This document shows, one piece after another, positions 15,205-61,045 of a DNA stretch of 64,000 nt (its first letter is position 1; the number at the start of each line of letters is the position of its first letter). Made by a program: the position numbers and the translations under genes. Below the pieces are notes generated by a model. It saw nothing but the letters and a program-made list of their open reading frames with translations. It did not search any database and was not told the origin of the DNA. Source of the DNA: Lepidostoma basale (Eukaryota; Arthropoda; Insecta; Trichoptera; Lepidostomatidae); NCBI GenBank assembly GCA_022606425.2, contig JAHDVF020000126.1:47501-111500 (forward strand). Reading direction: 5' to 3'.

Positions 15205-15390
15205 AGTTTAGAGACATCTGTCAAAACTGACCATATTGGTAAACAATTTTATAATATTTTAAATATTTATATAATAATATCACTGATGAAGGACTGGTAA
15301 GTCCGCAACATGTTTGATATTTTATTTTAATTTTATTTTTTTAATAAATATGAGTGTTGTATACAAAGTATATAAAAAAAGAATCATAAA
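15205..15390 (+). mobile_element. HH-F element (hammerhead-bearing retroelement-like repeat)
   Basis: ACATCTGTCAAAACTGACC upstream, a ribozyme at 15276-15321, then TTAATAAATATGAGTGTTGT and ATACAAAGTATATAAAAAAA at the 3' end. Further copies are at 19738-19872, 20030-20312 and 49471-49702. Confidence 0.7.
15276..15321 (+). ncRNA. Hammerhead-like ribozyme, HH-F
   Basis: Stem I AATATCA (15276-15282) pairs perfectly with TGATATT (15315-15321). CTGATGA (15283-15289) is the conserved box. Stem II is GGAC/GTCC with loop TGGTAA. The second box is GCAA instead of GAAA (15305-15308), which should cripple cleavage. Stem III ACATGT is palindromic. Confidence 0.75.
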
Positions 15391-15394
15391 ATAT

Positions 15395-15755
15395 TATCTG
15401 ATTAAAAATAAAAAAAACTTCGTTATTAATATCACAATTGATTATACCATATTTTCTCGCGACACCTGTTTCGCTAACCGATATCAGCATCATCTGGTCT
15501 TACAATCAACTAAAAGATACATCAGAAAGACTTAGTTTATTTACAAAATTATTAGAACGGGAAGAAACTACACACAATATTGTTAACAATTATAATATGA
15601 GATGGGAAAAAACAGTAATCTGATTTAGGTTAGGAGAAAATATAATCAATTGTAATATTTATAACATTAATTTTTAATTTTTAAACAGTTAATAATGTTG
15701 AAATATCAAAGTGTTTCCGCCAAAACAATGGATTATCTAAACTTTTAACTATCTA
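15395..15755 (-). mobile_element. HH-E element
   Basis: Contains a minus-strand ribozyme at 15432-15510, TATAATCAATTGTAATATTT, and the terminal motif AAAGTGTTTCCGCCAAAAC at about 15710 that also ends the copies at 40975 and 42535. Confidence 0.65.
15432..15510 (-). ncRNA. Hammerhead-like ribozyme, HH-E (one core change)
   Basis: On the minus strand: distal stem I TTGATT/AATCAA, box CAGATGA (15496-15490, second base changed), stem II ending GGTTAGC, GAAAC, AGGTGTC. Sister copies at 40662 and 42326 give the intact form. Confidence 0.6.
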
Positions 15756-16214
15756 TCACATCGTTTTTCCGAAGTGGACCAAAACGACGAATTAAAAAAT
15801 ATGAAATATTGCAAAGTAGAAAAAAGCTGTGTGTCGAAAATATGAGACAACTCAAAACAATTCTTATTTCTCGAGAAAAGTTTTGTAATATCGCCCTACG
15901 TGTTATATTGTACGTGGGCAAAGTTACGATAATCGAGCTTCGATTTTCTGATACTCGGCCTAGTTTGTCACCACCATTAGAGTATCATGTGTTAGGTATA
16001 CTGTTCCGCTTAGACTTCCATTTATTAATGGTTCCGGTGGGCGGTGGTGACGCAAGACAAGCGCCCCCTTCTCAATATGATGCGAGTATAATTATGAAAA
16101 ATAGTATTCGAAGAAATTGGACCCAACATTGCCCAGCCTTTTCACAATACGTTATTTATTTATTGAAGGGTAACATACAGTGATTGTTAATACACATACA
16201 GTTAAATAAAGACA
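15756..16214. other. Unassigned stretch
   Basis: A 124-codon frame (15809-16183) has no recognisable domain. No repeat match seen. Confidence 0.35.
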
Positions 16215-16720
16215 TAAAAGATTAACCGCCGCTTACCCGAAGCTTATAGGACGCAGCGGTGCCCCTTCGTCAGTTTCACTCAAACAATCCCTAGGCCCGC
16301 CCCCCATCGACGCAGGATTTACATTAGCTGGAGAATGCACCATTCCAGAAAAAAAAGCAAAAAGGTTATCTAGGCCACATTTAATCCAGATTAATTTCAA
16401 TCCACTTCTATGTCCCAATCTAACAAAACAAAGCAAAATATGGTACATGATTTTATGGCCTATTAAAGTTATTACTGTTTTTTTTGTATTCAACAACGAA
16501 AATTAGCTACCGCTTACTCGAAGCTGTTATAGGACGCAGCGCCGCCCTTTCGCCAGCTTAGCTCATGCAGGCCCGTCCCTCGTCCATGTGGGATTTACGT
16601 TAAATGGGTAATGCAATATTCCAAAAAAAGTATGAGAGAACCAGGCCACATTTAATCTAATTTATTTTTCACTTCTATATCCATATCTCACAAAACATGT
16701 TACACGATAAAACATAAAAA
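16215..16720 (+). repeat. X repeat, two tandem-like copies
   Basis: Copy 1 (16215-16455) and copy 2 (16503-16720) share CGCTTACCCGAAGCT, ATAGGACGCAGCG, GGATTTACATTA and GGCCACATTTAATC, in the same order about 285 bp apart. A third copy lies at 37470-37680. Class unknown; no coding capacity. Confidence 0.75.
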
Positions 16721-16879
16721 TAAAAACTTAAATACCATATATAACCAAGTGTAATTATACATTTAATTACATTTGGTATTACAACACTTTATTTCAATAA
16801 CAACAGACATGTCGATTGGTATTTAATAATATAACCTTCACCAATATACACAATTTTACCAACAAAATAAAAACATAGT

Positions 16880-17160
16880 GGTCACTTATATACTAAAAGG
16901 GGGTGAAGTTATGTATAAAGGTGGAGGGGGTATAATAAGATTGAGAGGAAGGGAGATATAACAGGAACATTTCGAACATGGGAATTGAATTTTAATTTAA
17001 CTGGTTGTTTATTATATTTTCACATGCCTGTATTGCACACTGTGCTTGCTAATGCACTGTGTGAAACATGTCTACGTTGAGTGAAATAAAGTGTTTAGTA
17101 CCAACTGTAATTATATTTATTCAAATATGAATCCACAACACAAAGTGAAGGCGAATATAG
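16880..17160 (+). repeat. Y repeat
   Basis: ATATACTAAAAGGGGGTGAA, AGGTGGAGGGGGTATAA and ATTTCGAACATGGGAATTG are found in reverse complement at 53650-53765. AATCCACAACACAAAGTGAA at about 17128 recurs at 53968, and in part at 7388. Confidence 0.6.
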
Positions 17161-17639: not shown

Positions 17640-18228
17640 TAAAGTTGTCATCGCAAACAAAAACCTATCCAAAAAAGCTAGAATGGCAGTGCACAATGGT
17701 GTTCTTCTACCGACCCTTATGTATGGAAGCGAAGCATGAAACTGGCAAAAGAAGGATGAAAGTAAAATAAATGCGGTGGAAATTAGATCTCTTAGACGAA
17801 TGTGTGGATACTCTGTGTATGATAAGAGTGTCGAATGAAAATATAAGAAGTGAATGCGGTGCGAATGATGGTGTCATGAACAAAATAATGAAAGGATCAT
17901 TAAGGTGGTTTGGACATACGGAAAGAATGAATGAAGAAAGAATGGTAAAAAAATTATATGTTAATGATGTGGTTCCATTAAAATAAAAATTATATGTTAA
18001 TGGAACCAGAAATAGAGGAAGACCGAGGAAAACGTGGCACGATCAAATAAATCAAATATTGAATGTCGGCCATGTGAGGAGTCAGAGAAATCGACGCGCG
18101 TGCATGACACGATGTATGAATGTTGAGGAAGCGAGAGAAATATGTCAGGAAAGAAAACTGTGGCAGTCCATTCTTTCTGCCTACCCCTTCGGGGAGACGG
18201 CGTGATGGTTAGTTAGTTAGTTTAGTAA
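17640..18228 (+). mobile_element. R1 fragment with a templated inverted insertion
   Basis: Encodes VVIANKNLSKKARMAVHN-like, LMYGSEA, a stop in AWNW, then SLRRMCGYSVYD, GSLRWFGHTERM and, after a break, RGRPRKTWHDQINQILN, RRACMTRCMNVEEA. At 17955-18010 the segment TTATATGTTAATG is repeated with an intervening inverted GGTTCCATTAA, a template-switch signature. Tail GGTTAGTTAGTTAG. Confidence 0.85.
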
Positions 18229-18254
18229 TAAATATGCGACACTTTTTTTTATTT

Positions 18255-18777: not shown

Positions 18778-18779
18778 AT

Positions 18780-19872: not shown

Positions 19873-20029
19873 GATAATAGAGTTGAAATTATGCATGTTT
19901 ATAATTGGAAATATAACTTTGAACAGTCTCGAAATTTTAGAAATAAAAAAAGCAATTAAAAATAAAGAAAATATTATAAATAATCAAATAAATTTAACGT
20001 CAAGTTCAATAGTTGATTTATTTTCTTTG

Positions 20030-22280: not shown

Positions 22281-23085
22281 TCTTCTTCTTCTTCACGTGT
22301 CCTGCTGGGTCCCCCCGACGTTGACGACCATTTTGGAGAAAGCTTCCTTGTCCTGGGGGGCGCGAAACAGCTCCCCCACAGTTCTGACGCCGCTCCTTTC
22401 TCGGATGCTTCGAAGCCAGGAGAGCTGTCTTCTGCCGACCCCTCTGCGGCCCTTAATATTCCCCTTCCCGACGAGCTGAAGTGCGATGTATTTGTTACCT
22501 CTCATTAACTAACTAACTGACTAACCATCACGCCGTTTCCCCGGAGGGGTAGGCAGAGAGGATGGATCGCCACATTGTTCTATTCTGGCATATGTCTCGC
22601 GCCTCTTCTACATTCACACATCGTGACATGCACGCTCGTCTATTGTTCCTACTTCAAACGTGGCCGCCTTTCAGTAATTGATTAATTTGGTCGTGCCATT
22701 TGGTTACCTCATTTCTTCGGTATTTACCTACTTTCATCCTTCTTCTGCCAACTCCAAGCTTCAATTCCAAACATAAGGGTCGGGATTGTGCACTGCCATC
22801 TTTGCTTCAGTCGATATATTTCTATTTGCGGTAATGACTTTGAGTGCAGCATTTATTTTGTTTCCAGCTCCAACCGTTCTTCCGATATCTTTCTACATTT
22901 TTCATCTCTTGTAAACATGCTTCCCAGATAAACAAATTCGGTAACTTGTTTTGATTTCTCACCTCTCATTACATGGCCAAAATATGATATTTTATGGAGC
23001 TTAACAGAGGTGAACAGTTCTCTATTTGCACTGGCTCTACGTAATACATAAGTGTGTGTTATCTGTGTGATATTTGGCATAAACC
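22281..23085 (-). mobile_element. R5 RTE-like fragment, split by R1
   Basis: Read on the minus strand it starts THTYVLRRASANRELF, KISYFGHVMRG (23085-22972), is broken by R1, and resumes NKYIALQLVGKGNIKGRRGV, GRRQLSWLRSIRE, AFSKMVVN (22496-22281), ending in an AGAAGAAGAA tail. Removing R1 and one TSD restores HVMRGNKY, the usual family sequence. Confidence 0.85.
22497..22971 (-). mobile_element. R1 copy nested in R5, with 11-bp TSD
   Basis: ACCTCTCATTA lies at 22497-22507 and again at 22961-22971. The element (22508-22960) ends in a (TTAG)n tail at its left side. It encodes VYLGSMFTRDEKC, TLMFGIEAWSWQKKDES and the RACM region, with an internal deletion that removes SLRRMCG to GRPRKTW. Confidence 0.88.
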
Positions 23086-23502: not shown

Positions 23503-23565
23503 GAGGCCACTGTCCAGGAGTGGACGGGAATAGGCAGAGGAAGAAGAAGAAGAAGAACGACATAT
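23503..23565 (+). mobile_element. R3 extreme 3' end
   Basis: CCAGGAGTGGACGGGAATAG followed by (GAA)n is the last about 60 nt of R3. Confidence 0.65.
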
Positions 23566-23568
23566 TTC

Positions 23569-23595
23569 GCGTTGCTAAGGCATTATCAAATGTAC
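23569..23595 (-). ncRNA. Hammerhead-like motif, HH-A
   Basis: Box TTGATAA (23589-23583), GCCTTAGC stem II start, GAAATATGTC. Second strand of stem II decayed. Confidence 0.45.
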
Positions 23596-23636
23596 AATAT
23601 TTACATTTGATGACACCTTAGCAAAATTGGTAACAT

Positions 23637-23680
23637 GACAATTGATAATGCCTTGGCATGGCGAAATATGTCATTCCTAT
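23637..23680 (+). ncRNA. Hammerhead-like motif, HH-A
   Basis: TTGATAA (23642-23648), stem II GCC/GGC, GAAA (23663-23666), TATGTC. Confidence 0.5.
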
Positions 23681-23724
23681 AAAATATAATAAAACTTCTA
23701 TAAAATAGAAGTTTTTTATTTTAT

Positions 23725-23770
23725 GGGAGTGACATGTTTAGCCCTTCTAAGGCATTATCAAATGTGACGA
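23725..23770 (-). ncRNA. Hammerhead-like motif, HH-A, GAAA mutated
   Basis: TTGATAA (23762-23756), stem II GCCTTAGAAGGGC, then TAAACATGTC (GAAA changed to TAAA). Confidence 0.45.
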
Positions 23771-23839
23771 AATTTCAGCTCGTTGCTGTTTATATACACT
23801 ATTAAATGTAGTAAAATATTATATAAACAGATGTTAAAA

Positions 23840-23885
23840 TAATAGATAATGCCTTAGAAGGGCGAAACATGTCATTCCCATAAAA
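23840..23885 (+). ncRNA. Hammerhead-like motif, HH-A
   Basis: TAGATAA box, stem II GCCTTAGAAGGGC, GAAACATGTC, ATTCCC. Confidence 0.45.
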
Positions 23886-23933
23886 TATAATAAAACTTCT
23901 AGAAAACTGACGTTTTCATTCGTATTAATTATT

Positions 23934-24375
23934 TTGACCTATGTATGGAGTATCTTGATGTACAGCTTCGAGACATGGTGCCTATCCGAAAGAGATAAGC
24001 GGAGACTAGAGGCTTTTGAGATGTGGTCCCATAGAAGACTATTAGGAATTTCCTGGAGAGACCACATCACGAATAAGGAAGTTCTTCAAGGAATCGAAGG
24101 AGGAAGGCACCTGCTCAGGACCTTGTCCGAAAGGCGTGCAAGATGGATCGGCCATGTTATACGTCAAGAAGGTCTCTTGCATGCCATAATGGAGGGTATG
24201 ACCGAGGGGACAAACTTTAGGGGACGCCCACGTCGAGAGTACCTGGAGGACCTGTTGGTAGAAGTGCGCTGCTCATCATATGCAGATTTCAAAAGAGCCG
24301 TACAAGACAGGGAAGAATGGAAGAGAAGAATACAAGAAATTGCTGCAAACCAATCCCAGGATTGAAACTTTCTAA
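23934..24375 (+). mobile_element. R4 RTE-like C-terminal region, open frame
   Basis: 143 codons open to the TGA at 24363: LEAFEMWSHRRLLGISWRDH, ITNKEVLQGI, ERRARWIGHVIRQEGLLH, RGRPRREYLEDLLVEVRCSS, REEWKRRIQEIAANQ. It is a LINE C-terminal tail with the same logic as R1 but a distinct family. 5' truncated directly at the HH-A element. Sister copy at 50548-50940. Confidence 0.85.
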
Positions 24376-26915: not shown

Positions 26916-27414
26916 TTGTTGGTCCCAACCCTTATGTATGGAAGCGAAGCATGGAACTGGCAGAAGAAAGATGAGAGCAGAATAAATGCGGTAAAGATGA
27001 GGTCCCTAAGACGTATGTGTGGTAGAACGATGTACGACAGAATCTCAAATGCTGATATTAGGAAGGAATGTAGAGCGAAAGAAGATATTATGAACAAAAT
27101 TATGAAAGGTTCGCTGCGTTGGTTCGGACATATGGAGCGCATGGGTGAAGAAAGAATGGTTAAAATATATACGTTAACGATGTAAATGGAGTAAGGAATC
27201 GAGGTAGACCGAGGAAAATATGGCATGGCCAAATTAATCAAATATTAAAGGTTGGTCATGTCAGAAGCCGGAAGAATCAACGTGCGTGTATGACTCGATG
27301 TATGAATGTGGAGGAAGCTTGAGAGGTGTGCCAGGATAGAGTAGTGTGGCGGTCCATTCTCTCTGCCTACCCCTGCGGGGAAACGGCGTGATGGTTTGTT
27401 GTTGTTGTTGTTAA
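26916..27414 (+). mobile_element. R1 subfamily b fragment with (TTG)n tail
   Basis: LVPTLMYGSEAWNWQKKDES, SLRRMCGRTMYDRIS, GSLRWFGHMERMGEE. A frameshift at about 27165 moves the rest (RGRPRKIWHGQINQIL, RRACMTRCMNVEEA-like) to another frame. The tail is TGTTGTTGTTGTTG, unlike the TTAG tail of subfamily a. Confidence 0.85.
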
Positions 27415-29299: not shown

Positions 29300-29660
29300 A
29301 ATGATTAATGACTGGGCCCAGTCTGTCGATGCCAGCGAGCCTGGCGAAACCGGTCGCTGTCGAATAAAAACATAATTGGAAGTAGTTAAAACACTTAATG
29401 TTTTTAATTGAAATTTCTTGGTAGAAGTTCATTTTAAATAATGAAAACAAAAAAAATATATACCAAATATACTTCCACCTGTGGAAGCACACTAAATACA
29501 TAATAATAATGAAATTTGATATAATTTTTTTTTTTTTTCATTATTTAGTTAAAACACATTGTTTTATTTAATTTTTATTTAAAATGAACTTCCGTAAATT
29601 CATTTGATTATATTTAAAAAGATTTCAGTAAATTCATTTGATTATCTTTAAAAAATATAT
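29300..29660 (+). mobile_element. HH-G element
   Basis: Ribozyme at 29319-29359, then TGTCGAATAAAAACATAATT, GGAAGTAGTTAAAACA and outer flank AATGAACTTCCGTAAATTCA. A small central palindrome CTTCCACCTGTGGAAG is at about 29468. Confidence 0.65.
29319..29359 (+). ncRNA. Hammerhead-like ribozyme, HH-G (A6 to U)
   Basis: Stem I CAGT/GCTG (one wobble), box CTGTCGA (29323-29329), stem II GCCAG CGAGC CTGGC with five perfect pairs, GAAA (29346-29349), stem III ACCGGT, cleavage triplet GTC. Only core position 6 departs from consensus. Confidence 0.7.
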
Positions 29661-30361: not shown

Positions 30362-30562
30362 ATTATCTTACTAACTAATATTTACACCGTCTCCCAGAAG
30401 GAATAGGTAGAAATAATCAAACGCCACACTGTTCTTTTTTTACCTACTTCACTCGCTTCCTCAACATTCATACATCGTTTCATGCACGCACGTCAATTTC
30501 TCCGACTCCTCACGTAGCCGATATTTAATATTTGATTTATTTGATCGTGCCACGCTTTCCAA
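30362..30562 (-). mobile_element. R1 3' fragment
   Basis: Antisense ACACCGTCTCCCAGAAGG, CATTCATACATCGTTTCATG, TTTGATCGTGCCACGCTTTC. Tail partly decayed. Confidence 0.8.
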
Positions 30563-31555: not shown

Positions 31556-32037
31556 TAACTAACTAACTAACCATCACGATAGGCAGAAAGAATGGACTGC
31601 CACACTCTTCTTTTCCTGACATATTTCTCTCGCTTCCTCAACATTCATACATCGTGTCATGCACGCGCGTCGATTTCTCTGACTCCTCACGTGGCCGACA
31701 TTCAATATTTGATTTATTCGATCGTGCTGCGTTCTCCTCAGTCTTCCTCTATTTCTAGCTCCGTTTATGCCGTATACATATATGTACCTTGTTTACCATT
31801 CTGTCTTCACTCATTCTTTCCATGTATCCGAACCATCTTAATAACCCTTTCATTATTTTGTTCATAACACTTTCATTCGCACCACATCACATCTTATACT
31901 TGCATTTGACACTCTATCATATAGAGATTTGCCACACATTCGTCTTAGTGATCTCATTTCTACTGCATTTATTCTGCTTTCAACCTTCTTTTGCCAGTTC
32001 CATGCTTCACTTCCATACATAAGGGTCGGCACAAGTA
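31553..32037 (-). mobile_element. R1 fragment
   Basis: Antisense copy starting at its TTAG tail (ACTAACTAACTAACCATCAC, 31556-31577) and reaching LVPTLMYGSEAWNWQKK upstream, with SLRRMCGKSLYDRV. Head-to-head with the plus fragment that follows. Confidence 0.85.
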
Positions 32038-33329: not shown

Positions 33330-33343
33330 AAAAATATTAAAAC

Positions 33344-33382
33344 ACACGACACGTTTCGGAGGATACCACCATCTTCAGGTGT
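33344..33382 (-). ncRNA. Hammerhead ribozyme, HH-J, intact core
   Basis: Stem I ACAC (33382-33379) with GTGT (33347-33344). CTGAAGA (33378-33372). Stem II GGTGG TAT CCTCC (4 of 5 pairs). GAAA, stem III ACGTGT, GTC. All conserved core bases are present. Confidence 0.82.
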
Positions 33383-33432
33383 AAAAATATAATTAAAAAT
33401 AATAATAATATAAAACATAAAACTTTTTTTTT

Positions 33433-33471
33433 ACACCTGAATATGGAGGAATCCTCCGAAACATGTCGTGT
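33433..33471 (+). ncRNA. Hammerhead-like ribozyme, HH-J (G8 changed)
   Basis: ACAC/GTGT stem I, CTGAATA (33437-33443), stem II GGAGG AAT CCTCC fully paired, GAAA, ACATGT, GTC. Confidence 0.7.
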
Positions 33472-33524
33472 TTTTTAATATTTTTTAAATAATTAGTGGA
33501 TTAAACAAAGTTATTTTCAATAAT

Positions 33525-33879: not shown

Positions 33880-34060
33880 GCTCAGTAAGTTGTTTTTATT
33901 ATAGTTTATAGGAATGACATGTTCACCGTTCTAAGACATTATCAAATATAATAATTTTTAATGATAATATCAAATGTAACAATTTTAATGATACACATTT
34001 GATAATGCCTAAGAAAGGCGAAATATTTCAATCCCATGAATTATAATAAAACTTCTGAAA
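33880..34060. mobile_element. HH-A inverted pair
   Basis: Minus motif (33910-33950, TTGATAA, decayed GAAA) and plus motif (33990-34035: TTGATAA 33999-34005, stem II GCCT/AGGC, GAAA 34020-34023). Confidence 0.6.
33990..34035 (+). ncRNA. Hammerhead-like motif, HH-A
   Basis: TTGATAA, GCCT AAGAA AGGC, GAAATATTTC, AATCCC. Core pair 3-8 is U-A as in the family. Confidence 0.5.
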
Positions 34061-37084: not shown

Positions 37085-37110
37085 TTATTTTGTTGAATCG
37101 CTCTTTGTAA

Positions 37111-37413
37111 ATTACGAAAGGATCGCTGCATTGGTTCGGACATATGGAGCGCATGGATGAAGAAAGAATGGTTAAAAAGTATACTTTAACGATGTAAATG
37201 GAGTAAGGAGTCGAGGTAGACCGAGGAAAACATGGCATGACCAAATTAATCAAATATTAAAGGTTGGTCATGTCAGAAGCCGGAAGAATCGACGTGCATG
37301 TATGCCTCGATGTATGAATGTGGAGGAAGCTAGAGAGGTATGTCAGGATAGAGTAGTGTGGAGGTCCATTCTCTTTGCCTACCCCTGCGGGGAAACGGCG
37401 TGATGGTGTTGTT
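37111..37413 (+). mobile_element. R1 subfamily b 3' fragment
   Basis: LHWFGHMERMDEERMVKK, RGRPRKTWHDQINQILK, RRACMPRCMNVEEAREVCQD with frame shifts, then GGTGTTGTTGCTG in place of TTAG. Confidence 0.8.
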
Positions 37414-38289: not shown

Positions 38290-38363
38290 ATTTTTAACAA
38301 TTATAAACTGTTAAATTTAAAAAAAAATGTTTTGGGTATAACAATTTTAACAATTTTATTCTT

Positions 38364-38405
38364 CACGATAGCTGTTTCGTCAACCATTGTTGACATCGTC
38401 AGGTG
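38364..38405 (-). ncRNA. Hammerhead ribozyme, HH-D, intact core
   Basis: CAC (38405-38403) with GTG (38366-38364), CTGACGA (38402-38396), stem II GTCAAC AATG GTTGAC with six perfect pairs, GAAA (38378-38375), cleavage triplet ATC. Stem III ACAGCTAT has one mismatch. Confidence 0.82.
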
Positions 38406-38611
38406 TTATAATAATACTCGTATATCAAATGTCAAATTTTCGTGATTTTTCGAAAATTTATGTGTGTTTGTTCCAATGTTCCTAAGTTCTTGCTGGAGTT
38501 GGGTTAGAACTTCAAAATTAATTCAAAGAAATTATTCAAATCGGCATAGGAACAAATATACATAAAGGTTCGAAAAATCACGAAAATTTGACATTTGATA
38601 TATTATTGTAA

Positions 38612-38655
38612 CACCTGATGATGTCAATGTAGATTGACGAAATAGCTGTCGCAAA
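38612..38655 (+). ncRNA. Hammerhead ribozyme, HH-D, intact core
   Basis: CTGATGA (38615-38621), stem II GTCAAT GTAG ATTGAC with six perfect pairs although its bases differ from the sister motif, GAAA (38639-38642), stem III ATAGCTGT, GTC. Distal stem I ATTGTA pairs with TACAAT beyond 38665. Confidence 0.82.
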
Positions 38656-38807
38656 AAATAAAAATACAATTGTGATACATAAAGCAAAGCAAATTTAATT
38701 TAACAGTTTAAAATGTTAAGGTATCATGTTATTTATTGTTTCGGCATTCACTTTGGGGTAGGACATGATTAAATTGTAAATAAAACACTTGTTTTTCACC
38801 ACTTGAG

Positions 38808-38870
38808 TATATTATTTTACACGACTAGTTTCGGAAGCTACAGATGCTTCCATCTACAGGTTTCAATATA
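38808..38870 (-). ncRNA. Hammerhead-like ribozyme, HH-H (A6 to U)
   Basis: Distal stem I TATATT/AATATA, CTGTAGA (38859-38853), stem II GGAAGC/GCTTCC with six pairs, GAAA, stem III ACTAGT, GTC. Confidence 0.7.
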
Positions 38871-38893: not shown

Positions 38894-38955
38894 TTTATAT
38901 TGAAACCTGTAGATTAAGCATCTGTAGCTTCCGAAACTAGTCATGTAAAATATAA
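38894..38955 (+). ncRNA. Hammerhead-like ribozyme, HH-H (A6 to U)
   Basis: TATATT distal stem, CTGTAGA (38907-38913), stem II (TTAAGC/GCTTCC, partly mismatched), GAAA (38933-38936), ACTAGT, GTC. Confidence 0.65.
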
Positions 38956-40407: not shown

Positions 40408-40510
40408 TAATAAATTGGTTTATTTTTTCTTGAACAGTGATGTAAAACTCCATATAAAATAATGAATACGAATGAAAACTTCAGTTTTCTTGAAGTTTTA
40501 TTATATTTTA

Positions 40511-40552
40511 TGGGAATGACATGTTTCGCCTTTCTAAGGCATTATCAAATTT
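40511..40552 (-). ncRNA. Hammerhead-like ribozyme, HH-A, best stem II
   Basis: TTGATAA (40548-40542), stem II GCCTT AGA AAGGC with five perfect pairs, GAAA, stem III ACATGT, GTC. Confidence 0.6.
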
Positions 40553-40555
40553 CGT

Positions 40556-40596
40556 CACATTCGATAATGCCTAGAAGAGCGAAACATGTCATTCCC
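40556..40596 (+). ncRNA. Hammerhead-like motif, HH-A
   Basis: TCGATAA box, GCCTAGAAGAGC, GAAACATGTC, ATTCCC. Confidence 0.45.
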
Positions 40597-40661
40597 ATAA
40601 AATATAATAAAACTTCTAGAAAACTGCCGTTTTCATTCGTATTATTTAATTAATAAATTAG

Positions 40662-40728
40662 TTGATTGTAAAACCTGACGATGCTAACATCGGTTAGCGA
40701 AACAGCTGTCGCGACAAAAGATAATCAA
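40662..40728 (+). ncRNA. Hammerhead ribozyme, HH-E, intact core
   Basis: Distal stem I TTGATT (40662-40667) with AATCAA (40723-40728), CTGACGA (40675-40681), stem II GCTAAC ATCG GTTAGC perfect (40683-40698), GAAA (40699-40702), stem III ACAGCTGT perfect palindrome, GTC (40708-40710). Confidence 0.82.
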
Positions 40729-42535: not shown

Positions 42536-42656
42536 AAATTAACCTTTTTTAATATAATCAAATGATTTTACTGAAATCTCTTGATCGATGTTCATTTTAA
42601 ATAATAATTAAATAAAACATTTTTTTTAACTACTTCCACTTTTGTCTTTATTTCGA

Positions 42657-42698
42657 CAGCAACCGGTTTCGCCAGGCTCGCTAGCATCGACAGACTGG
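42657..42698 (-). ncRNA. Hammerhead-like ribozyme, HH-G (A6 to U)
   Basis: CTGTCGA (42693-42687), stem II GCTAG/CTGGC with loop CGAGC, GAAA, ACCGGT, triplet GTT. Confidence 0.65.
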
Positions 42699-42719
42699 TT
42701 TCTGGACGCTATGATTGAC

Positions 42720-42759
42720 CAGTCTGTCGATGCCAGCGAGCCTGCGAAACCGGTCGCTG
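42720..42759 (+). ncRNA. Hammerhead-like ribozyme, HH-G (A6 to U)
   Basis: CAGT/GCTG stem I, CTGTCGA (42724-42730), stem II GCCAG/CTG-GC with one base lost, GAAA (42746-42749), ACCGGT, GTC. Confidence 0.65.
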
Positions 42760-42790
42760 TCGAAATAGAGAAAAAAATATTAATTAACCC

Positions 42791-44883: not shown

Positions 44884-45366
44884 TTGGCAGTGCACAATGG
44901 TGTTCTTCTACCGACCCTTACGTATGGAAGCGAAGCATGGAACTGGCAAAAGAAGGATGAAAATAGAATAAATGCAGTAGAAATGAGATCTCTTAGAATG
45001 TGTTGAATGAAAATATAAGAAGTGAATGCGGTGCGAATGATGGTGTCATGAACAAAATAATGAAAGGATCATTAAGATGGTTTGGACATATGGAAAGAAT
45101 GAATTAAGAAAGAATGGTAAAAAAATTATATGTTAACGATGTAAATGGAGCCAGAAATAGAGGAAGACCGAGGAAAACGTGGCACGATCAAATAAATCAA
45201 ATATTGAATGTCGGCCATGTGAGGAGTCAGAGAAATCGACGCGCGTGCATGACACGATGTATGAATGTTGAGGAATCGAGAGAAATATGTCAGGAAAGAA
45301 AAGTGTGGCAGTCCATTCTTTCTGCCTGCCCCTTCGGAGAGACGGCGTGATGGTTAGTTAGTTATA
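44884..45366 (+). mobile_element. R1 fragment
   Basis: GGCAGTGCACAATGGTGTTC start, LPTLTYGSEAWNWQKKDENR, a deletion at SLRR(M)C, then frame shifts, and from 45114 an open MVKKLYVNDVNGARNRGRPR, KTWHDQINQILN, RRACMTRCMNVEESREICQE. TTAG tail at 45352. Confidence 0.85.
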
Positions 45367-45949: not shown

Positions 45950-46345
45950 GTAATCGAAGGTTGAGGCAGAAAGAATGGATTGCAACACTCTTCTTTCCTG
46001 ACACATATCTGTCGCATCCTCAACGTTCATACATCGTGTCATGCACGCGCATCGATTTCTCTGACTCCTCACGTGGCCAACACTCAATATTTGATTCATT
46101 TGATCGTGCCACGTTTTCCTCAGTCTTCCTTTATTTCTAATTCCATTTACATCGTTAACATATACTTTTTTACCATTCTTTCTTCATTCATTCTTTCCAT
46201 GTGTCCAAACCATCTTAATGGTCCTTTCATTATTTCGTTCATAACACCATCATTCGCACCGCATTCACTTCTTATTCGACACTCTATCATACACATAGTA
46301 TTCGCACATTCGTCTAAGAGGTCTCATTTCTACTGCATTTATACA
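45950..46345 (-). mobile_element. R1 fragment
   Basis: Antisense from AGGCAGAAAGAATGGATTGC to TCTCATTTCTACTGCATTTA. It lacks the tail and has one small deletion in the NENIRSEC region. Confidence 0.82.
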
Positions 46346-48261: not shown

Positions 48262-48631
48262 ACATTTTATGGGACATTTTGAATGTATACAAATACTTGT
48301 AGACAAGTACTGGATTTAACCCATTGCGGGTCAGTCATTTTTAAGATTAATTTTTATCTCAATAGAGACGAAGATGTAAATTGTTTTTTGGAAACAGAAT
48401 ATGGTGGTCGAGGCGTTTACAGGACTTATGATATTGGTTGGGTCAAGCGATCGCTTTATATAATACAACATTCCCCATTCCGCCCTTCTTGTTGGAATGT
48501 TGTATTGCATAAAGCGATCGCTTAACCCAACCAATGACAGGTCATAAGTCCTGTAAACGCCTCTACCACCATATTCTGTTTCCAAAAAACAATTTACATC
48601 TTCACCTCTATTGAGATAACATTTTATGGGA
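48262..48631. mobile_element. P element copy P7, long palindrome with 13-bp TSD
   Basis: ACATTTTATGGGA at 48262-48274 and 48619-48631. The insertion (48275-48618) is a head-to-head repeat: the plus arm TGGTGGTCGAGGCGTTTACA...GCGATCGC and the minus arm GCGATCGCTTAACCCAACC...ACCACCATATTCTG, about 100 bp each, joined near 48490. Confidence 0.85.
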
Positions 48632-48668
48632 ATTACATGTTTCGCCTTTCTAAGGCATTATCAAATGT
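48626..48668 (-). ncRNA. Hammerhead-like ribozyme, HH-A
   Basis: TTGATAA (48664-48658), stem II GCCTT AGA AAGGC perfect, GAAA, ACATGT, triplet GTA. Confidence 0.55.
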
Positions 48669-48711
48669 TCTACGGCTATATCATTTGATAATAATATTCG
48701 TGTTTCAAATG

Positions 48712-48810
48712 TTACATTTGATAATGCTAAGGCATTTTGACATATTTTGGCATTTTGGCATTTGACATTTTGGCATTTGGCCCTTCTAAAGAAGGGCGAA
48801 ACATGTCATT
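48712..48810 (+). ncRNA. Hammerhead-like motif with expanded stem II, HH-A
   Basis: TTGATAA (48718-48724) and GAAACATGTC (48798-48807) are 73 bases apart instead of about 17. The gap is filled by GGCATTTTGACAT-like repeats and ends in GCCCTTCTAAAGAAGGGC, itself a perfect hairpin. Confidence 0.5.
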
Positions 48811-49020
48811 CCCATAAAATATAATAAAACTTCTAGAAACCTGACGTTTTCATTCGTATTAATTATTTAATATGGAGTTTTACAACATTGTTCAAGAAAC
48901 ACTGAATAAATTTAATTAAATTAATCTAAATTCTTCCACCCGTTCAATTCTATATCTTCTAGAAGTTAATTAATATAGACGATGTGTATAACATCTCAGA
49001 AGCTTGTGGGGATAAATAAA

Positions 49021-49063
49021 CTTAATGACACGTTTCGCCATGTAAAGATATTATCAAACGCAG
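49021..49063 (-). ncRNA. Hammerhead-like motif, HH-A type
   Basis: TTGATAA (49057-49051), ATATCTTTACATGGC, GAAACGTGTC, ATTAAG. Stem II weak. Confidence 0.4.
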
Positions 49064-49435: not shown

Positions 49436-49522
49436 GCATTTATCCCTATTTCCTTTATCCCTTTCTTTTTTATATACTTTGTATACATATACAACACTAA
49501 CTTTAATTTATTTTTTTAATTA

Positions 49523-49567
49523 AATCTCAGACATGTTTCGGACAACCGATCCTTCCTCAGTGATATA
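49523..49567 (-). ncRNA. Hammerhead ribozyme, HH-F, intact core
   Basis: Stem I ATATCA/TGAGAT (5 of 6), CTGAGGA (49560-49554), stem II GGAT/GTCC with loop CGGTT, GAAA, stem III ACATGT, GTC (49532-49530). Confidence 0.82.
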
Positions 49568-49600
49568 ATAAAGATACATATTTTAAATATGCGTCTTTAT

Positions 49601-49644
49601 AATATCACTGAGGAAGGAACATTGTCCGAAACATATCTGATATT
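49601..49644 (+). ncRNA. Hammerhead ribozyme, HH-F, intact boxes, perfect stem I
   Basis: AATATCA (49601-49607) with TGATATT (49638-49644), seven pairs. CTGAGGA (49608-49614), stem II GGA...TCC with an A bulge, GAAA (49628-49631), ACATAT, ATC. Confidence 0.82.
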
Positions 49645-49794
49645 TAATTTTTTTTTATTTAAAGTTAGTGTTGTATTATATATACAAAGTATATAAAAAA
49701 GAAAAATACAAATAAAACATCTAAACATATGGCGAACATAGAAGAAATGAAACAGCATTGTCCAAAAAAAAACAATAAATATCATTATACGAAT

Positions 49795-52403: not shown

Positions 52404-52464
52404 TAACACTTAATTAAACACTTTTTGTACTTTGTATACAACCACTTTATTTGTGAGGATGATG

Positions 52465-52501
52465 GCCTACCGGTTTCGCTCTATGCGAGCTTCTTCAGGG
52501 C
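52465..52501 (-). ncRNA. Hammerhead ribozyme, HH-I, intact core
   Basis: GCC/GGC stem I with distal TGTG/CACA, CTGAAGA, stem II GCTC GCATA GAGC perfect, GAAA, stem III ACCGGT, triplet GTA. Confidence 0.85.
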
Positions 52502-52803
52502 TTTACACATACGGTATGTGTAACAGTATCATACAGTCAGTGGGGGTACTCCCATAGAAGCCCAGAAGCCCGACTTGCGTAAGAAATTTTGAATCAAAAC
52601 CCCCAAATCTAAGAAATCGTGCCCCCGCATAAACCAACAACCCACCAATTAACCACCCAACAATGTTCCCATCAGACATAAGAGGAATAGTCAGAAGAGC
52701 TTAACCTCTGTAAGCCAGAAGAGGTTTTGATTTAAAATTTCTTACGCAAGCCTGGCTTCTGGGCTTCTATGGGAGTACCACCACTGCATACAGTATGTGT
52801 AAA

Positions 52804-52840
52804 GCCCTGAAGAAGCTCGCATAGAGCGAAACCGGTAGGC
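52804..52840 (+). ncRNA. Hammerhead ribozyme, HH-I, intact core
   Basis: GCC (52804-52806) with GGC (52838-52840), CTGAAGA (52807-52813), stem II 52815-52818 with 52824-52827, GAAA (52828-52831), ACCGGT (52831-52836), predicted cleavage after A52837. Distal stem I TGTG/CACA. Confidence 0.85.
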
Positions 52841-53089
52841 CCCCATCTTCACAAATAAAGTGGTTGTATACCAAGTACAAAAAGTCTTTAATTAAGTGTT
52901 ATATATGTCCAACCACCAAGCAATGATTTCTTATCAAAGTTTATTAATTAATTGTTTACAAACTATAAAACTTGATTTGTATGAATCAAAACACTTTTTT
53001 TCACTTGTATGAGTTTGTTTATCTAGATACAATTGTATATGTTATAAACACAGTTATCCTTCACCATCGGTTAAACAAAGATAACTATC

Positions 53090-53470: not shown

Positions 53471-53530
53471 TGTCTAGATCTTCTGGATGATCAGAAGATG
53501 GCAGCGAGTTTCCGAAACCGGTCGTAGACA
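53471..53530 (+). ncRNA. Degenerate hammerhead-like motif, HH-M
   Basis: Distal stem I TGTCTA/TAGACA, box CAGAAGA (53492-53498), weak stem II, GAAA, stem III ACCGGT, GTC. Confidence 0.45.
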
Positions 53531-53649
53531 CAAACATGAGTGGATTTTAACAAATATACATTTTAAAGAAACGTTATACATAAGTTTTTATGAAATTATT
53601 CATCATCAGACTATAATTCTTAAACAAAATGTAAATCAAATCAGATAAA

Positions 53650-55334: not shown

Positions 55335-55560
55335 AATAACTAACCATCACGCCGTCTATACGGAGAGGTAGGCAAAAATAATAGACCGCCACATTGTTCT
55401 GTCCTGACATACTTTTCTCGGTTCCTCTACATCTATACATCGTGTCATGCACGTAGGTAGATTTCTCCGACTCCTTACGTGACGTACATTTAATATTTGA
55501 CTAATTTGATCGTGCCGCATTTTCCTCGGCCTTCCTCTTTTTCTAGCTCCGTTTGTGTCT
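55335..55560 (-). mobile_element. R1 3' fragment
   Basis: Antisense TAACTAACCATCACGCCGTC, ACATCGTGTCATGCACGTAG, TTTGATCGTGCCGCATTTTC. Diverged. Confidence 0.8.
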
Positions 55561-55964
55561 TTGTTTTTTTTTTAGTTAATTATCTCTTTAATATAGATTA
55601 AATAAAATGTAATACATAAAATAGTGCATCTATTTTGAAGCATATGATTATGTTATTCATTCATAAGTAGACTCTTTGTTCGATAGGACAAAAACAGATT
55701 CACATTAACGTGATTAAAAATAATTCTAAATTAATTCAAGTGGATATAGTAGGGCCGTGAGTGATGATCTAAACTCAATTATTTGATTAAAAAGATACTA
55801 ATAATATCTTTAAACACACAATAAAGAAGGTTGGTTTTCTATAAATTGTTATATATTGAAACTTTGTCAAGAAGCCAATACTTTTAAAAATTGAATACAC
55901 ACTTTTTTCAAACACTTTGTATAAAAACCACTTTATTTTGAGTAAGGAGCGAGGTTGCAGACTG
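55561..55964. other. Unassigned AT-rich stretch
   Basis: CACTTTGTATAAAAACCACT at about 55913 resembles the HH-I outer end. Otherwise nothing. Confidence 0.4.
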
Positions 55965-56190: not shown

Positions 56191-56211
56191 ATGATTATTA
56201 AATAAATAAGG

Positions 56212-57098: not shown

Positions 57099-57389
57099 AC
57101 CATATATTGGTTGAATGGTTGAATGGTTAAAAAAGTATACGTTAACAATGTAAATGGAGTAAGGAGTCGAGGTAGACCGAGGAAAACATGGCATGACCAA
57201 ATTAATCAGATATTAAAAGTTGGTCATGTCAGAAGCCGGAAGAGTCGACGTGCGTGTATGACTCGATGTAGGAATGTGGAGGAAGCTAGAGAGGTGTGCC
57301 AGGATAGAGTAGTGTGGCGGTCCATTCTCTCTGCCTACCCCTGCAGGGAAACTGCGTGATGGTTTGTTGTTGTTGTTGAACCATATATT
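57099..57389 (+). mobile_element. R1 subfamily b 3' fragment with 10-bp TSD
   Basis: ACCATATATT at 57099-57108 and 57380-57389. The element encodes VKKVYVNNVNGVRSRGRPRK, TWHDQINQILKVGHVRSRKS, RRACMTRCRNVEEAREVCQD, WRSILSAYPCRETA, then GTTTGTTGTTGTTGTTG. Confidence 0.88.
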
Positions 57390-57511
57390 TTTTATAAAGA
57401 CAAAAAAAACACTTTTTTCTTGTGAGATTAACTGTGAACTAACTAACTAAAAATCGAGATATTTATTAATAATTAAACAGATTTTTTTAAACAAATAATG
57501 AATTTATAATA

Positions 57512-57781
57512 TTTTTACTTTGATTTTTAATGTATATGTTAACGATGTTAATGGAACCAGAAATAGAAGAAGACCGAGGAAAACGCGGCACGATCAAATA
57601 AATCAAATATTGAATGTCGGCCATGTGAAGAGTCAGAGAAATCGACGCGCGTGCATGACACGATGTATGAATGTTGAGGAAGCAAGAGAAATATGTCAGG
57701 AAAGAAAAGTGTGGCAGTCCATTCTTTCTGCCTACCCCTTCGGGGAGACGGCGTGATGGTTAGTTAGTTTTTTACTTTGAT
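57512..57781 (+). mobile_element. R1 subfamily a 3' fragment with 13-bp TSD
   Basis: TTTTTACTTTGAT at 57512-57524 and 57769-57781. The frame reads VYVNDVNGTRNRRRPRKTRH, RRACMTRCMNVEEAREICQE, WQSILSAYPFGETA, and the tail is GGTTAGTTAG. Confidence 0.9.
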
Positions 57782-58379: not shown

Positions 58380-58520
58380 GACGTCCCTAACATCGATGGA
58401 GAGACGATATTGGTACGACATGTATGCGTGCTGCTCCAGGATCGACAGACATGAAAGCAGATAGAGAAAGCCTACGTCCAGGAGTGGACGGCTCCAGGCT
58501 AATGATGATGATGGTGACTT
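58380..58520 (+). mobile_element. RTE-like C-terminal fragment
   Basis: HRWRDDIGTTCMRAAPGSTD, then shifted KAYVQEWTAPG, stop and an ATGATGATGATGG tail. Close in form to R2. Confidence 0.65.
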
Positions 58521-58639
58521 AAATACTCGAAACGAAACGAAAAATACTCTGTAATTAACTAAAGCGCTTGACTTGGATTTTGAAATAAAGTGAATTTAAG
58601 TTGCTCGTGCCGTATTAAATAAAATAAGAACCATCTCAT

Positions 58640-59115
58640 GCAACGATAATCTTAACCCGAAACTCCGACAATGAATGGGTAAATGTTATACGAGTATATG
58701 GTCTGTTCTACTTTATGGCTGTAGAATAAACTTGGACTCTAAAAGTGAATATAATGAACCAGTTGGGGGCGTTTTAGATGTGGATATACTTCAAAATGCT
58801 CCGTATATCGTGGACCAAAAGGTCAGTAATGCAGACGTACTACATAGAGCCGAAGCCAATAGATGGCTATTGTCCAGAATGAAAATAAGAAAAATGTCAT
58901 ATTTGGGTCATGTGCTAAGGGGAGAAAAATACCATATCTTTCGGCTGATAATCATGGGTAATATAGAGGAACGACAGTTAGTTGGCAGAAGGTAGTGTTA
59001 GATCGGAAAAGAATTAGGAAACTTGAGAACCTGTTTTAAGAAGCGCATGACAGAGATGCTTTCGATGCAGTGATCGCCTATATTAGAGGGACCTGACACG
59101 CACCAGAATAATAAA
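58640..59115 (+). mobile_element. R5 RTE-like fragment
   Basis: SVLLYGC, frameshifted MWIY.KMLRISW, KVSNADVLHRAEANRWLLSR, MKIRKMSYLGHVLRGEKY, FRLIIMGNIEERQLVGRR, then frame loss and RDAFDAVIAYIRGT near 59070. Tail AATAATAAAAAAAA. Confidence 0.82.
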
Positions 59116-60039
59116 AAAAATCTGTAATCCATTTTCCATAATGAAATATTGAGATGAAATATCGAAGATGTCAAACCCGGGTAATTATGTCAGCATCTTT
59201 ACGGAGTAATTCATTGACCTTTACCGCGCGCGTATCCCGATACCATTACGGTCCCAGCGCGACCCAGGGTAACCATAGTAAACACCGGGTGATTATTTGC
59301 CCCAAACCCGGCGTTATCTCCGCTGATAACCCAGTCTTTAGCGTCCGCAAAGTCACCCCTTTCACCGTGGAAGGCGGCAAACTGAAACCAGGGGGTGGAT
59401 TCAGGGTCGGATTTAATTATTTGCGAGGATTTATATAAAAACCTGATTCGCCAATAGTAAGGATTCTAGTTTCAGATAGTTTATTTATTTGGGTACTTAA
59501 AAAAAAATTACATTTAACACCGGAATCCCTTATTACACATTTTTTAATGAATACGATGGTTTTTCCATTTATGAAAGTTTATTTATTACAGATTGTATTA
59601 CTCGTATATACTTTCATCATTGGCTTTAGCCGATAGCCGATAGTGAGATTATATTATTAAAAATATGAATACGTACACAATAAAAACATTGTTTTGAAAA
59701 TACATACTAATGTTTTAATTATAATTTATTATTTTTTTATTTAAAAATAAATAACCAACCTGCTTCTGGAGGGCATTCAGAGTCTGCTGAACATGATCAC
59801 CTCGGAGATTGACGTCTTTCATATTAGCGAAAATATGTTCAAAAAACAATACTCCTGTCATTAGAGAGAACCTTATCTTCTTAAAGTAGAACCATCCCTT
59901 GTGCGTTTGTGGTATTTTACCTGTTCTAAAAAATCTCGTATATCATAAACTATAAATATGTATAATGTCTTTTAAGAAGAAAAAAAAACTGGTTTGATTT
60001 GATCAATGTAACAACCTTATGTTACTATTATAATACAAT
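59116..60039. other. Unassigned; GC-rich island 59190-59450
   Basis: The island is CpG-rich and unique in the window. A 94-codon frame (59154-59438) has no recognisable domain. The rest is AT-rich. Confidence 0.4.
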
Positions 60040-60420
60040 TCTTCAACCAGTGCGTCTTGCCGGTCATGAGGTACGGAGCCGAGACGTGGAAACTGACAAA
60101 AGATCTAGTCTACGGATTCAAGGTCGCCCAACGCGCCATGGAAAGAGCCATGCTTGGAATAACCTTGAGGGATAGATTTAGAAACGAATTTATTCGACAG
60201 CAAACCAAGGTGACTGAGGTGGCTCTGAGGATGGGCGGGCTGAAGTGGCGATGGGCTAGCCATATCTGTCGGAAAACCGACGACCGATGGGGGAGACGGG
60301 TTCTGGAGTGGAGACCGCGTACAGGATTCCGCAGAGTTGGACGTCCCCCTGCCCGCTGGACCGACGATCTGGAGAGGATTGCTGGACATGGATGGACAGA
60401 GAGCTGATGATAATGATGAA
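60040..60420 (+). mobile_element. R2 RTE-like C-terminal fragment, open frame
   Basis: LPVMRYGAETWKLTKDLVYG, QRAMERAMLGITLRDRFRNE, QQTKVTEVALRMGGLKWRWA, SHICRKTDDRWGRRVLEWRP, RRVGRPPARWTDDLERIAGH. The last about 20 residues (EAYVQQW) are deleted and it ends TGATGATAATGATGAA. Confidence 0.88.
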
Positions 60421-60997
60421 CATACTTATTATGGGAAAATAAGAGAGAATACCATAAAAGAAAAATATAGAAATCAAAAATATATGCAAGTACTTGGCCC
60501 TAATTCCGCCCTGTTGCCAGCTGAAGGAGCTCAGTGACAATATTAATAATCATTTTGATAATCCCAGTACGCGTTGTAAAGATAAAGTACAGGGGCGTAA
60601 TAGGGTAATACTAATTAATGTACACATACACACGTACATACTATCAAATATGTAGTTACATGTGTGAACAAATTATTTTATAAATCCACCAGATAATTCG
60701 AAAGCTAAAGAAAATAATCGTAATAGTTAAAAAAACATAAGTTAAAAGCATCGTTTTACTTAATTATTAAAAAAAAAACTTTAATAACTAACTATTGAGC
60801 CATTTTTGGAGTAGGCAAGAATAAACAGACATACTCTACTATTCTGATAGACTTATAAATCCTGATATATGTATATATAAAAAGAACCTTTTGTATTCTA
60901 ACCACGGAATAGTTGTTATAAGAAAGCCAAATAGCATAGCTTGTACCAATCCTTCTTCAATACATTATAATAACTTACACTAACTCTTAGTTCCTAT
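60421..60997. other. Unassigned stretch
   Basis: Nothing recognised. Confidence 0.4.
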
Positions 60998-61045
60998 ATT
61001 GCCCCGATGAGGCTTTAGTACAGACGAAACTAGTTAACTTCAATT
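60998..61045 (+). ncRNA. Degenerate hammerhead-like motif, HH-N
   Basis: CCGATGA (61004-61010, U4 to C), stem II GGCT/AGAC (3 of 4), GAAA (61026-61029), stem III ACTAGT, triplet GTT. Flank ATTCCGTGGTTAAAATACAG at about 61051 echoes ATTCTAACCACGGAAT at 60894. Confidence 0.5.

What the first reader, a model, noticed from the sequence alone, without database searches (positions are those of the whole stretch)
15276..61045. A dense array of hammerhead-ribozyme motifs in about a dozen sequence families
Seen: at least 30 sites fit CUGANGA - stem II - GAAA - short palindrome - UH. Nine have both boxes exact (20555, 33344, 38364, 38612, 40662, 49523, 49601, 52465, 52804). Stem II bases differ between families but still pair (GCTC/GAGC, GTCAAC/GTTGAC, GTCAAT/ATTGAC, GCTAAC/GTTAGC), which is covariation. 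Established: hammerheads with a very short stem III occur in Penelope-like retroelements, retrozymes and some animal satellites. Inference: these repeats are decayed, non-autonomous relatives of such retroelements.
Basis: partly seen in the sequence, partly recalled or inferred. Interest (0 to 1): 0.9.

Follow-up and report, generated by a model that had tools for sequence, protein, structure and literature searches.

The report
Penelope retroelement hammerhead ribozyme repeats
This stretch of an insect (probably moth or butterfly) genome holds many short relics of Penelope-like jumping genes, each carrying a small hammerhead-ribozyme-like fold; the kind is already known, but here it is very abundant and shows how the copies were probably inserted.

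Summary
The sites are real. Rfam's hammerhead models find none. Likely reasons: the eight aligned families have one extra nucleotide between A9 and stem II, and stem III is only a 6-8 nt palindrome. Canonical spacing is not enriched (3 vs 2.3 expected); one-nucleotide spacing is (16 vs 2.5). Stem II covaries. Core bases 3 and 8 are C-G or U-A in 76 of 82 sites.

The host genome is held (769 Mb). GCGAAACATGTC occurs 26,790 times against 24 for its reversed control. GIY-YIG loci, two confirmed to carry reverse transcriptase too, have the motif downstream in 29 of 34, of window families F and G. So F and G are Penelope relics; the others very likely. About half of scored family B arms (86 of 174) form head-to-head pairs. 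In six of six family F pairs one arm is long, one short; five of five testable have 12-13 nt target duplications.

This matches published Penelope biology. Cleavage was not tested; family F has A6U.

The parts
40667..40716 (+). HHR-like site, family A (CTGACGA-T-GCTAAC/GTTAGC-GAAACAGCTGTC)
   Evidence: R1 55.3 bits, E 4.5e-11
38607..38656 (+). HHR-like site, family A, right arm of a head-to-head pair with 38361-38410
   Evidence: R1 50.7 bits
38361..38410 (-). HHR-like site, family A, left arm
   Evidence: R1 50.0 bits; inverted arms 38421-38478/38545-38602, 91%
15455..15504 (-). HHR-like site, family A
   Evidence: R1 49.6 bits
42338..42387 (-). HHR-like site, family A
   Evidence: R1 47.7 bits
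20555..20604 (-). HHR-like site, family A, decayed stem II
   Evidence: R1 33.4 bits
33611..33660 (-). HHR-like site, family A, decayed GAAA box
   Evidence: R1 40.6 bits
40408..40659 (.). Family B head-to-head foldback (sites 40510-40556 - and 40553-40598 +), one long and one short arm; 9-nt word TAATAAATT at 40408 and 40651 is a possible target duplication
   Evidence: the word is not significant alone (16 of 200 shuffles)
23551..23951 (.). Family B composite of four sites (23551-23597 -, 23634-23680 +, 23723-23769 -, 23835-23881 +)
   Evidence: R1 26.1, 25.2, 33.2, 41.2 bits
48213..48908 (.). Family B head-to-head pair (48626-48672 - and a decayed right core at 48778-48815 +, E 1.4), left arm interrupted by another foldback at 48346-48627
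33908..34037 (.). Family B pair (33908-33953 -, 33991-34037 +), decayed
   Evidence: R1 18.3 and 29.1 bits
35496..35542 (+). HHR-like site, family B
   Evidence: R1 32.8 bits
43474..43521 (-). HHR-like site, family B
   Evidence: R1 24.9 bits
49843..49889 (+). HHR-like site, family B
   Evidence: R1 30.6 bits
38769..38996 (.). Family C foldback (sites 38815-38867 - and 38899-38950 +; core CTGTAGA, A6U)
   Evidence: arms 81 nt, 96% complementary; R1 40.9 and 18.9 bits
52395..52951 (.). Family D foldback (sites 52460-52506 - and 52799-52845 +) with 12-nt target duplication TTTATTAATTAA at 52395 and 52940; right arm about 41 nt longer than left
   Evidence: arms 115 nt, 95%; word of this length in 1 of 200 shuffles
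49522..49645 (.). Family E foldback (sites 49522-49568 - and 49600-49645 +)
   Evidence: R1 31.9 and 20.8 bits; stem I AATATCA/TGATATT by eye
15275..15322 (+). HHR-like site, family E, GCAA in place of GAAA
   Evidence: R1 22.1 bits, E 0.0046
29315..29363 (+). HHR-like site, family F (core CTGTCGA, A6U)
   Evidence: R1 41.3 bits; same motif follows GIY-YIG frames
42653..42763 (.). Family F head-to-head pair (42653-42701 -, 42716-42763 +)
   Evidence: R1 38.2 and 34.5 bits
33308..33507 (.). Family G foldback (sites 33340-33386 - and 33429-33475 +)
   Evidence: R1 31.9 and 40.5 bits; same motif follows GIY-YIG frames
53484..53531 (+). HHR-like site, family H (core CAGAAGA, U4A)
   Evidence: R1 38.8 bits
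7233..7281 (-). HHR-like site, family I (weak)
   Evidence: R1 20.7 bits, E 0.01

Best explanation
The sites are 3'-end relics of several families of EN-containing Penelope-like elements (PLEs) in an insect, probably lepidopteran, genome. Each arm carries a minimal type I hammerhead motif: core C/U3-U4-G5-A6-N7-G/A8-A9, one extra nucleotide, stem II, GAAA, a 6-8 nt palindrome as stem III, U-H, and a short stem I. The palindrome would let two RNAs form a full stem III, so any cleavage would be dimeric. Insertion by the PLE protein: nicks on both target strands (staggered about 12-13 nt) each prime reverse transcription inside the RNA, at one of two sites downstream of the motif. The two cDNAs run toward the RNA 5' end and are joined head to head, giving an inverted pair with tails outward and a target duplication. 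Shown: motif, covariation, abundance, linkage to GIY-YIG loci (families F and G), head-to-head arrangement, two discrete 3' ends in family F, target duplications. Inferred: dimer cleavage, double target-primed reverse transcription, and PLE origin of the families without a coding copy in hand.
For: Window sites. Core 3-8 covariation: 76 of 82 Watson-Crick against a shuffle mean of 41.7, maximum 55 in 2000. Palindrome exact in 45 of 71 GAAA-bearing sites. Abundance: 26,790 vs 24. PLE frames: 62 PF01541 matches, 150 of 541 candidates scored; RVT_1 1.4e-13 and GIY-YIG 6.6e-5 in the L043 frame; named relatives near the top of the list in Phthorimaea and Euphydryas. Motif on the same strand downstream of GIY-YIG: 4 of 4, 9 of 9 (356-453 bp away by arithmetic), 3 of 6, 13 of 15, together 29 of 34; background 52 sites per 200 kb. 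Orientation: five of five adjacent GIY-YIG pairs in the list are (-,+); family B neighbours -+ 43, -- 9, ++ 2, +- 1. Two 3' ends. Target duplications of 12-13 nt in 5 of 5 testable family F pairs, reached in 0-1 of 500 shuffles each. Literature: PMC11167929 (section 3 read whole), PMC3846280 (passages), PMC3088659 (section 8 read, other passages), PMC7761336 and PMC7229834 (passages).
Against: Rfam hammerhead models do not match. Family F, whose inverted arms are 97-100% complementary, has A6U; PMC3088659 reports low activity for A6C, so the ribozyme of this young family may be weak. Families H (U4A) and C (A6U) also deviate. Stem I is only 1-4 bp in most families by eye. By the fixed rule the one-long-one-short pattern in family B is only modestly above chance (19 of 27, p 0.045), and 16 further pairs could not be scored. 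Half of the scored family B arms (88 of 174) show no head-to-head partner by the rule. Five of 34 GIY-YIG loci lack the motif in the stretch fetched. Window foldbacks other than D have no convincing target duplication.
Confidence: 0.9

Rival explanations
1. Retrozymes: small non-autonomous tandem repeats with type I hammerheads that spread as circular RNA.
For: One array, L003, has a monomer of about 134 bp repeated in tandem, each unit with a motif.
Against: Among close family B neighbours head-to-head outnumbers tandem 43 to 11, and 5 of the 9 -- cases are that one array (listing). The motif has the PLE-type minimal stem III. GIY-YIG loci carry the same motif families F and G.
Confidence: 0.05
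2. Foldback or MITE DNA transposons whose terminal inverted repeats happen to contain a hairpin.
For: Inverted arms; target duplication of family D.
Against: The two arms have unequal, discrete 3' ends and, in L043-L045, different 5' truncation, and the same arms end reverse-transcriptase/GIY-YIG frames. Transposon termini would be symmetrical.
Confidence: 0.03
3. Head-to-head pairs arise by self-priming or template jumping on an antisense PLE transcript (the proposal in PMC3846280) instead of two target-primed reactions.
For: PMC3846280 argues this from palindromes at junctions; L046 is a perfect palindrome with 1 nt between its arms.
Against: In L044 and L045 the arms differ in 5' end by hundreds of nt. 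The two arms end at two different sites that fit the published RT start sites. The published Poseidon protein nicks and extends both strands (PMC11167929).
Confidence: 0.25
4. The hammerhead likeness is vestigial: the hairpin is kept as a protein-binding or RNA-dimer structure, not as a ribozyme.
For: A6U in families F and C and U4A in H with intact stem II and palindrome; insertion of Poseidon RNA does not need hammerhead activity in vitro (PMC11167929).
Against: Core nucleotides are well kept overall: U4 in 70 of 82, A6 in 74 of 82, 3-8 pair in 76 of 82. Poseidon's motif cleaves with protein (PMC11167929).
Confidence: 0.3

Closest known systems
Poseidon element of Anolis carolinensis (PAc), Penelope/Poseidon PLE (PMC11167929, section 3 read)
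   Same: RT + GIY-YIG ORF; hammerhead motif beside the ORF start; two internal RT start sites with the optional 'tail' between them; protein cuts and extends both strands. [quoted passage not shown]
   Different: Here several families and, for family B alone, over 26,000 exact copies of a 12-nt box; family F has A6U; many copies are short head-to-head pairs.
Minimal type I hammerheads of PLEs (Cervera & de la Pena 2014; Lunse et al. 2017; known here only through passages and reference lists of citing papers)
   Same: Very short or missing stem III, dimer cleavage, dispersed in animal genomes.
   Different: Whether the extra nucleotide after A9 is described for that class could not be checked; neither paper is held.
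Adineta vaga Penelope elements (PMC3846280, passages)
   Same: Inverted pLTRs with head-to-head as the commonest inverted layout, 8-10 bp target duplications, a 31-bp tail at one of the inverted pLTRs.
   Different: A few copies there; here the pattern could be counted in dozens of loci, and family B pairs are reduced to roughly 200-350 bp. The word hammerhead does not occur in that paper (term search).
Metazoan retrozymes (PMC7229834, passages)
   Same: Small non-coding repeats with type I hammerheads.
   Different: Retrozymes are tandem repeats of about 170-400 nt with canonical hammerheads; here one array with about 134-bp units was seen (L003).

Membership tests
EN-containing Penelope-like elements | Single ORF with telomerase-like RT and C-terminal GIY-YIG endonuclease | tested here: met
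   RVT_1 and GIY-YIG in the two frames scanned, L043 and L044; 62 GIY-YIG matches in the genome. Met in the genome, not in the window. Telomerase likeness of the RT was not tested.
EN-containing Penelope-like elements | Hammerhead motif in the pLTR region | tested here: met
   29 of 34 GIY-YIG loci have it downstream on the same strand.
EN-containing Penelope-like elements | Inverted or direct partial second copy, optional 3' tail, short target duplications | tested here: met
   window family D.
EN-containing Penelope-like elements | Direct pLTRs on both sides of the ORF | tested here: inconclusive
   L043 has an inverted, not a direct, upstream copy; no complete tandem unit was fetched.
Hammerhead ribozyme (type I, minimal) | CUGANGA core with 3-8 pair | tested here: met
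   55 of 82 sites have an intact core with C3-G8 or U3-A8; 76 of 82 keep the 3-8 pair. Consensus cores of families C, F (A6U) and H (U4A) deviate.
Hammerhead ribozyme (type I, minimal) | Stem II directly after A9, then GAAA | tested here: not met
   One extra U or A intervenes in the eight aligned families. An extra core nucleotide is known in a viroid hammerhead (title of De la Pena & Flores 2001 in reference lists; its position is recalled, not read).
Hammerhead ribozyme (type I, minimal) | Stem II covariation | tested here: met
Hammerhead ribozyme (type I, minimal) | Match to Rfam hammerhead models | tested here: not met
Hammerhead ribozyme (type I, minimal) | Self-cleavage | not testable with these tools
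   Needs bench assay.
Retrozyme | Tandem array of 150-450 bp units with canonical type I hammerhead | tested here: not met
   Window sites are dispersed or in head-to-head pairs; only L003 is a clear tandem array, with about 134-bp units.

The most novel reading that the evidence does not exclude
Each insertion is made from one PLE RNA that offers two reverse-transcription entry sites, one for each nicked target strand. This would force one long and one short arm (6 of 6 family F pairs; 19 of 27 classified family B pairs by the fixed rule). The hammerhead fold, kept even where A6 or U4 is mutated, would then serve mainly as an RNA architecture (palindromic dimer contact beside the entry sites) and no longer as a ribozyme.
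Probability: 0.2. Interest if true: 0.6.

Novelty: new member of a known kind. Interest (0 to 1): 0.38.

Why it matters
Penelope-like elements are among the least understood retrotransposons. This genome offers many thousands of small insertions that record where reverse transcription began and ended on both strands, so models of PLE insertion and the role of its hammerhead could be tested by counting. It also suggests that standard Rfam models can miss this hammerhead class, so its abundance in insect genomes may be underestimated.

Tried and rejected
Rejected: canonical hammerhead geometry (no enrichment); Rfam support (none); miRNA-precursor and other matches below gathering score (taken as foldback or chance matches); copying of the foldback as a unit, suggested by L043 and L055 sharing a junction, because they also share the left flank and so look like one duplicated locus; Penelope coding remnants in the window (the strong tblastn rows come from a different LINE frame in L054; the best Penelope row is a 24-aa stretch at 19919-19990, E 0.01-0.09, in an A-rich tandem repeat).

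Led nowhere: whole-genome pattern and DNA searches to count long/short pairs (not completed). A 'C3-G8' paper search found nothing; the U3-A8 precedent was then found in PMC3088659. Papers not held: PMC4209133, PMC5785218. Two-strand folding had no control and is not used as evidence.
Full report
What was claimed.

Is it there? Rfam gives no hammerhead match at gathering score, at E<=10 over the window, or on the 121 bases around site 38607. My own scan for a CUGANGA-like core, stem II and GAAA gave 3 sites with no spacer before stem II, 16 with one nucleotide and 3 with two. Dinucleotide shuffles gave 2.3, 2.5 and 2.5 (30 shuffles). So the motif is real, but it carries one extra nucleotide between A9 and stem II. 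In the 82 sites compared that nucleotide was U in 68 and A in 14, by the model's own alignment. A model (R1) from 16 sites of eight families (A-H) found 33 sites at E<=0.04 with filters off, 17 of them not used in training. R1 is built from the window's own sites, so the training sites match by construction.

Is it a fold? Stem II in the 16-site alignment: 94.9% of 79 cells pair, 5 of 6 pairs change on both sides, 0 of 500 shuffles reach the covariation score, and slides of 1-3 columns give 18-57% paired. Of 85 sites from the window and 200 kb of the same genome, three were dropped because of gaps. In the other 82 the core bases 3 and 8, which pair in the hammerhead core, are C-G in 46, U-A in 30 and otherwise in 6; shuffling gives a mean of 41.7 Watson-Crick and a maximum of 55 in 2000. 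Related copies inflate such counts. At family level the U-A families are B and the families of L040:9273 and L040:6694, plus one site of E (window 20202, E 0.14), and the rest are C-G. Natural U3-A8 and its in vitro activity are reported in PMC3088659 (section 8 read). The 6-8 nt after GAA is an exact palindrome in 45 of the 71 sites that have GAAA: ACATGT 21, ACAGCTGT 11, ACCGGT 11, ACTAGT 2. About 1-2 would be expected at 1 in 64 (my arithmetic).

The genome. The window lies in a held genome of 769 Mb. GCGAAACATGTC, the 3' box of family B, occurs 26,790 times, against 24 for its reversed control. Twenty 10-kb stretches of one contig (200 kb) hold 52 R1 sites at E<=0.05 (default filters), so the window, with 33 in 64 kb, looks richer than that sample.

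The link to Penelope. A GIY-YIG search scored 150 of 541 candidates and gave 62 matches. The L043 frame (758 aa, open) and the L044 frame have RVT_1 and GIY-YIG; the best-ranked named relatives of L043 are moth and butterfly proteins, so the host is probably a lepidopteran (inference). R1 finds a site on the same strand downstream of GIY-YIG in 4 of 4, 9 of 9, 3 of 6 and 13 of 15 loci, 29 of 34 in all. One of the five misses (L074) was fetched only up to the tail. L043 and L055 share a flank and are not independent. In the nine loci the distance is 356-453 bp. Two element groups appear, with the window's family F and family G motifs. No convincing Penelope coding sequence was found in the window. 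The other families have no coding copy in hand; their link rests on the shared motif and architecture.

Architecture. All five adjacent GIY-YIG pairs in the list are (-,+), head to head. In family B, 174 arms were scored in the window, L003-L042 and L076-L115: neighbours within 250 bp are -+ 43, -- 9, ++ 2, +- 1, and 86 of the 174 arms are in a head-to-head pair. Fifteen of the 43 pairs come from L003-L022, where 15 of 20 loci had been chosen because cores lay close together; 28 come from the window, the random stretches and 40 loci picked for a single core (18 of those 40 show a partner). Among the 33 window sites, 10 neighbouring pairs (20 sites) are head to head within one family (A, B, C, D, E, F, G); the four +- neighbours are of different families except one in the B composite at 23.6 kb.

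Ends. Family F arms end at one of two places 49 nt apart, downstream of the motif. In six of six pairs (C742, C453, C1549, C1107, C1139, C542) one arm is short and the other long. The partners of 13 single GIY-YIG loci (L063-L075) were not examined. In five of five testable pairs a word of 12-13 nt repeats at the two outer ends, reached in 0, 0, 0, 0 and 1 of 500 shuffles; C742 sits in an AT repeat and cannot be judged. Window family D has a 12-nt duplication (1 of 200 shuffles); the other six window foldbacks tried gave 9 to 159 of 200. In family B the fixed rule gives 19 long/short, 3 long/long, 5 short/short, and 16 pairs with a truncated or edge arm that could not be scored; permutation p is 0.045. 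If two borderline long/long calls, which look short by eye, are moved, the count is 21/1/5 and p 0.0035. Family F alone gives 0.016 under equal chances, 0.07 by permutation.

How it works. The Poseidon protein nicks and extends both target strands, starts reverse transcription at two internal sites, and the 'tail' is the sequence between them (PMC11167929, section 3 read whole). Its ORF starts at the start of stem II; here six of the eight aligned families have an ATG formed by A9, the extra U and the first base of stem II. In L053 the two ends lie 86 and 135 nt from that ATG, near the published start site at 111-118 nt and its 30-40 nt tail. PMC3846280 (passages) already reports head-to-head inverted copies, short target duplications and a tail at one of the inverted pLTRs. 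The simplest reading is two target-primed reactions joined head to head. That paper's alternative, self-priming on antisense RNA, remains open; L046 is a perfect palindrome. PMC11167929 saw no difference in start site between strands in vitro, which speaks against a strict one-site-per-strand rule.

Is it a working ribozyme? Unknown. Families A, E and G have copies with an intact core. Family F, young by its arms (97-100% complementary), has A6U. PMC3088659 reports low activity for A6C. PMC11167929 found that insertion in vitro does not need hammerhead activity. So the motif may be kept for structure.

Novelty. Penelope hammerheads, dimer cleavage, the head-to-head layout and one-sided tails are known from the papers above. 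The extra nucleotide could not be compared with the two key papers, which are not held; a viroid precedent is known here by title only. The local value is abundance and countability.

Noticed in passing
L003 (G000:C1:1463000-1466000), about 908-1708: Tandem array of a family B unit of about 134 bp in two alternating variants (period 269); a retrozyme-like arrangement with a very short unit.
   Followed up: partly
675-891, 12756-13043, 17957-18215, 22506-22699, 27057-27377, 30364-30560, 31612-31782, 37109-37389, 45063-45348, 45955-46275, 55337-55595, 57128-57336, 57529-57742, 61436-61723: A second dispersed repeat of about 200-300 bp in both orientations. Some stop-to-stop frames there read like the 3' end of a LINE.
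   Followed up: no
5262-5523/6162-6420, 24797-24844/25339-25386, 48346-48431/48542-48627: Another foldback family with the sequence CTCAATAGAGACGAAGATG...GGAAACAGAATATGG, without a clear hammerhead stem II.
   Followed up: no
L046 centre, about 1065-1067: Perfect palindrome with 1065-nt arms and 1 nt between them, made of two family F copies truncated at nearly the same point.
   Followed up: partly
1747-2106 and 60037-60396: Inverted pair of a LINE-like fragment, 93% complementary over 360 nt, 58 kb apart.
   Followed up: no
L043 and L055: Two loci on different contigs sharing the left flank and the Penelope insertion at 98%, with different right flanks: duplicated locus or allelic contigs.
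   Followed up: partly
49024-49060 (minus strand): By eye, a further family B-like motif (TTTGATAATATCTTTACATGGCGAAACGTGTC) that R1 did not list at E<=10.
   Followed up: no
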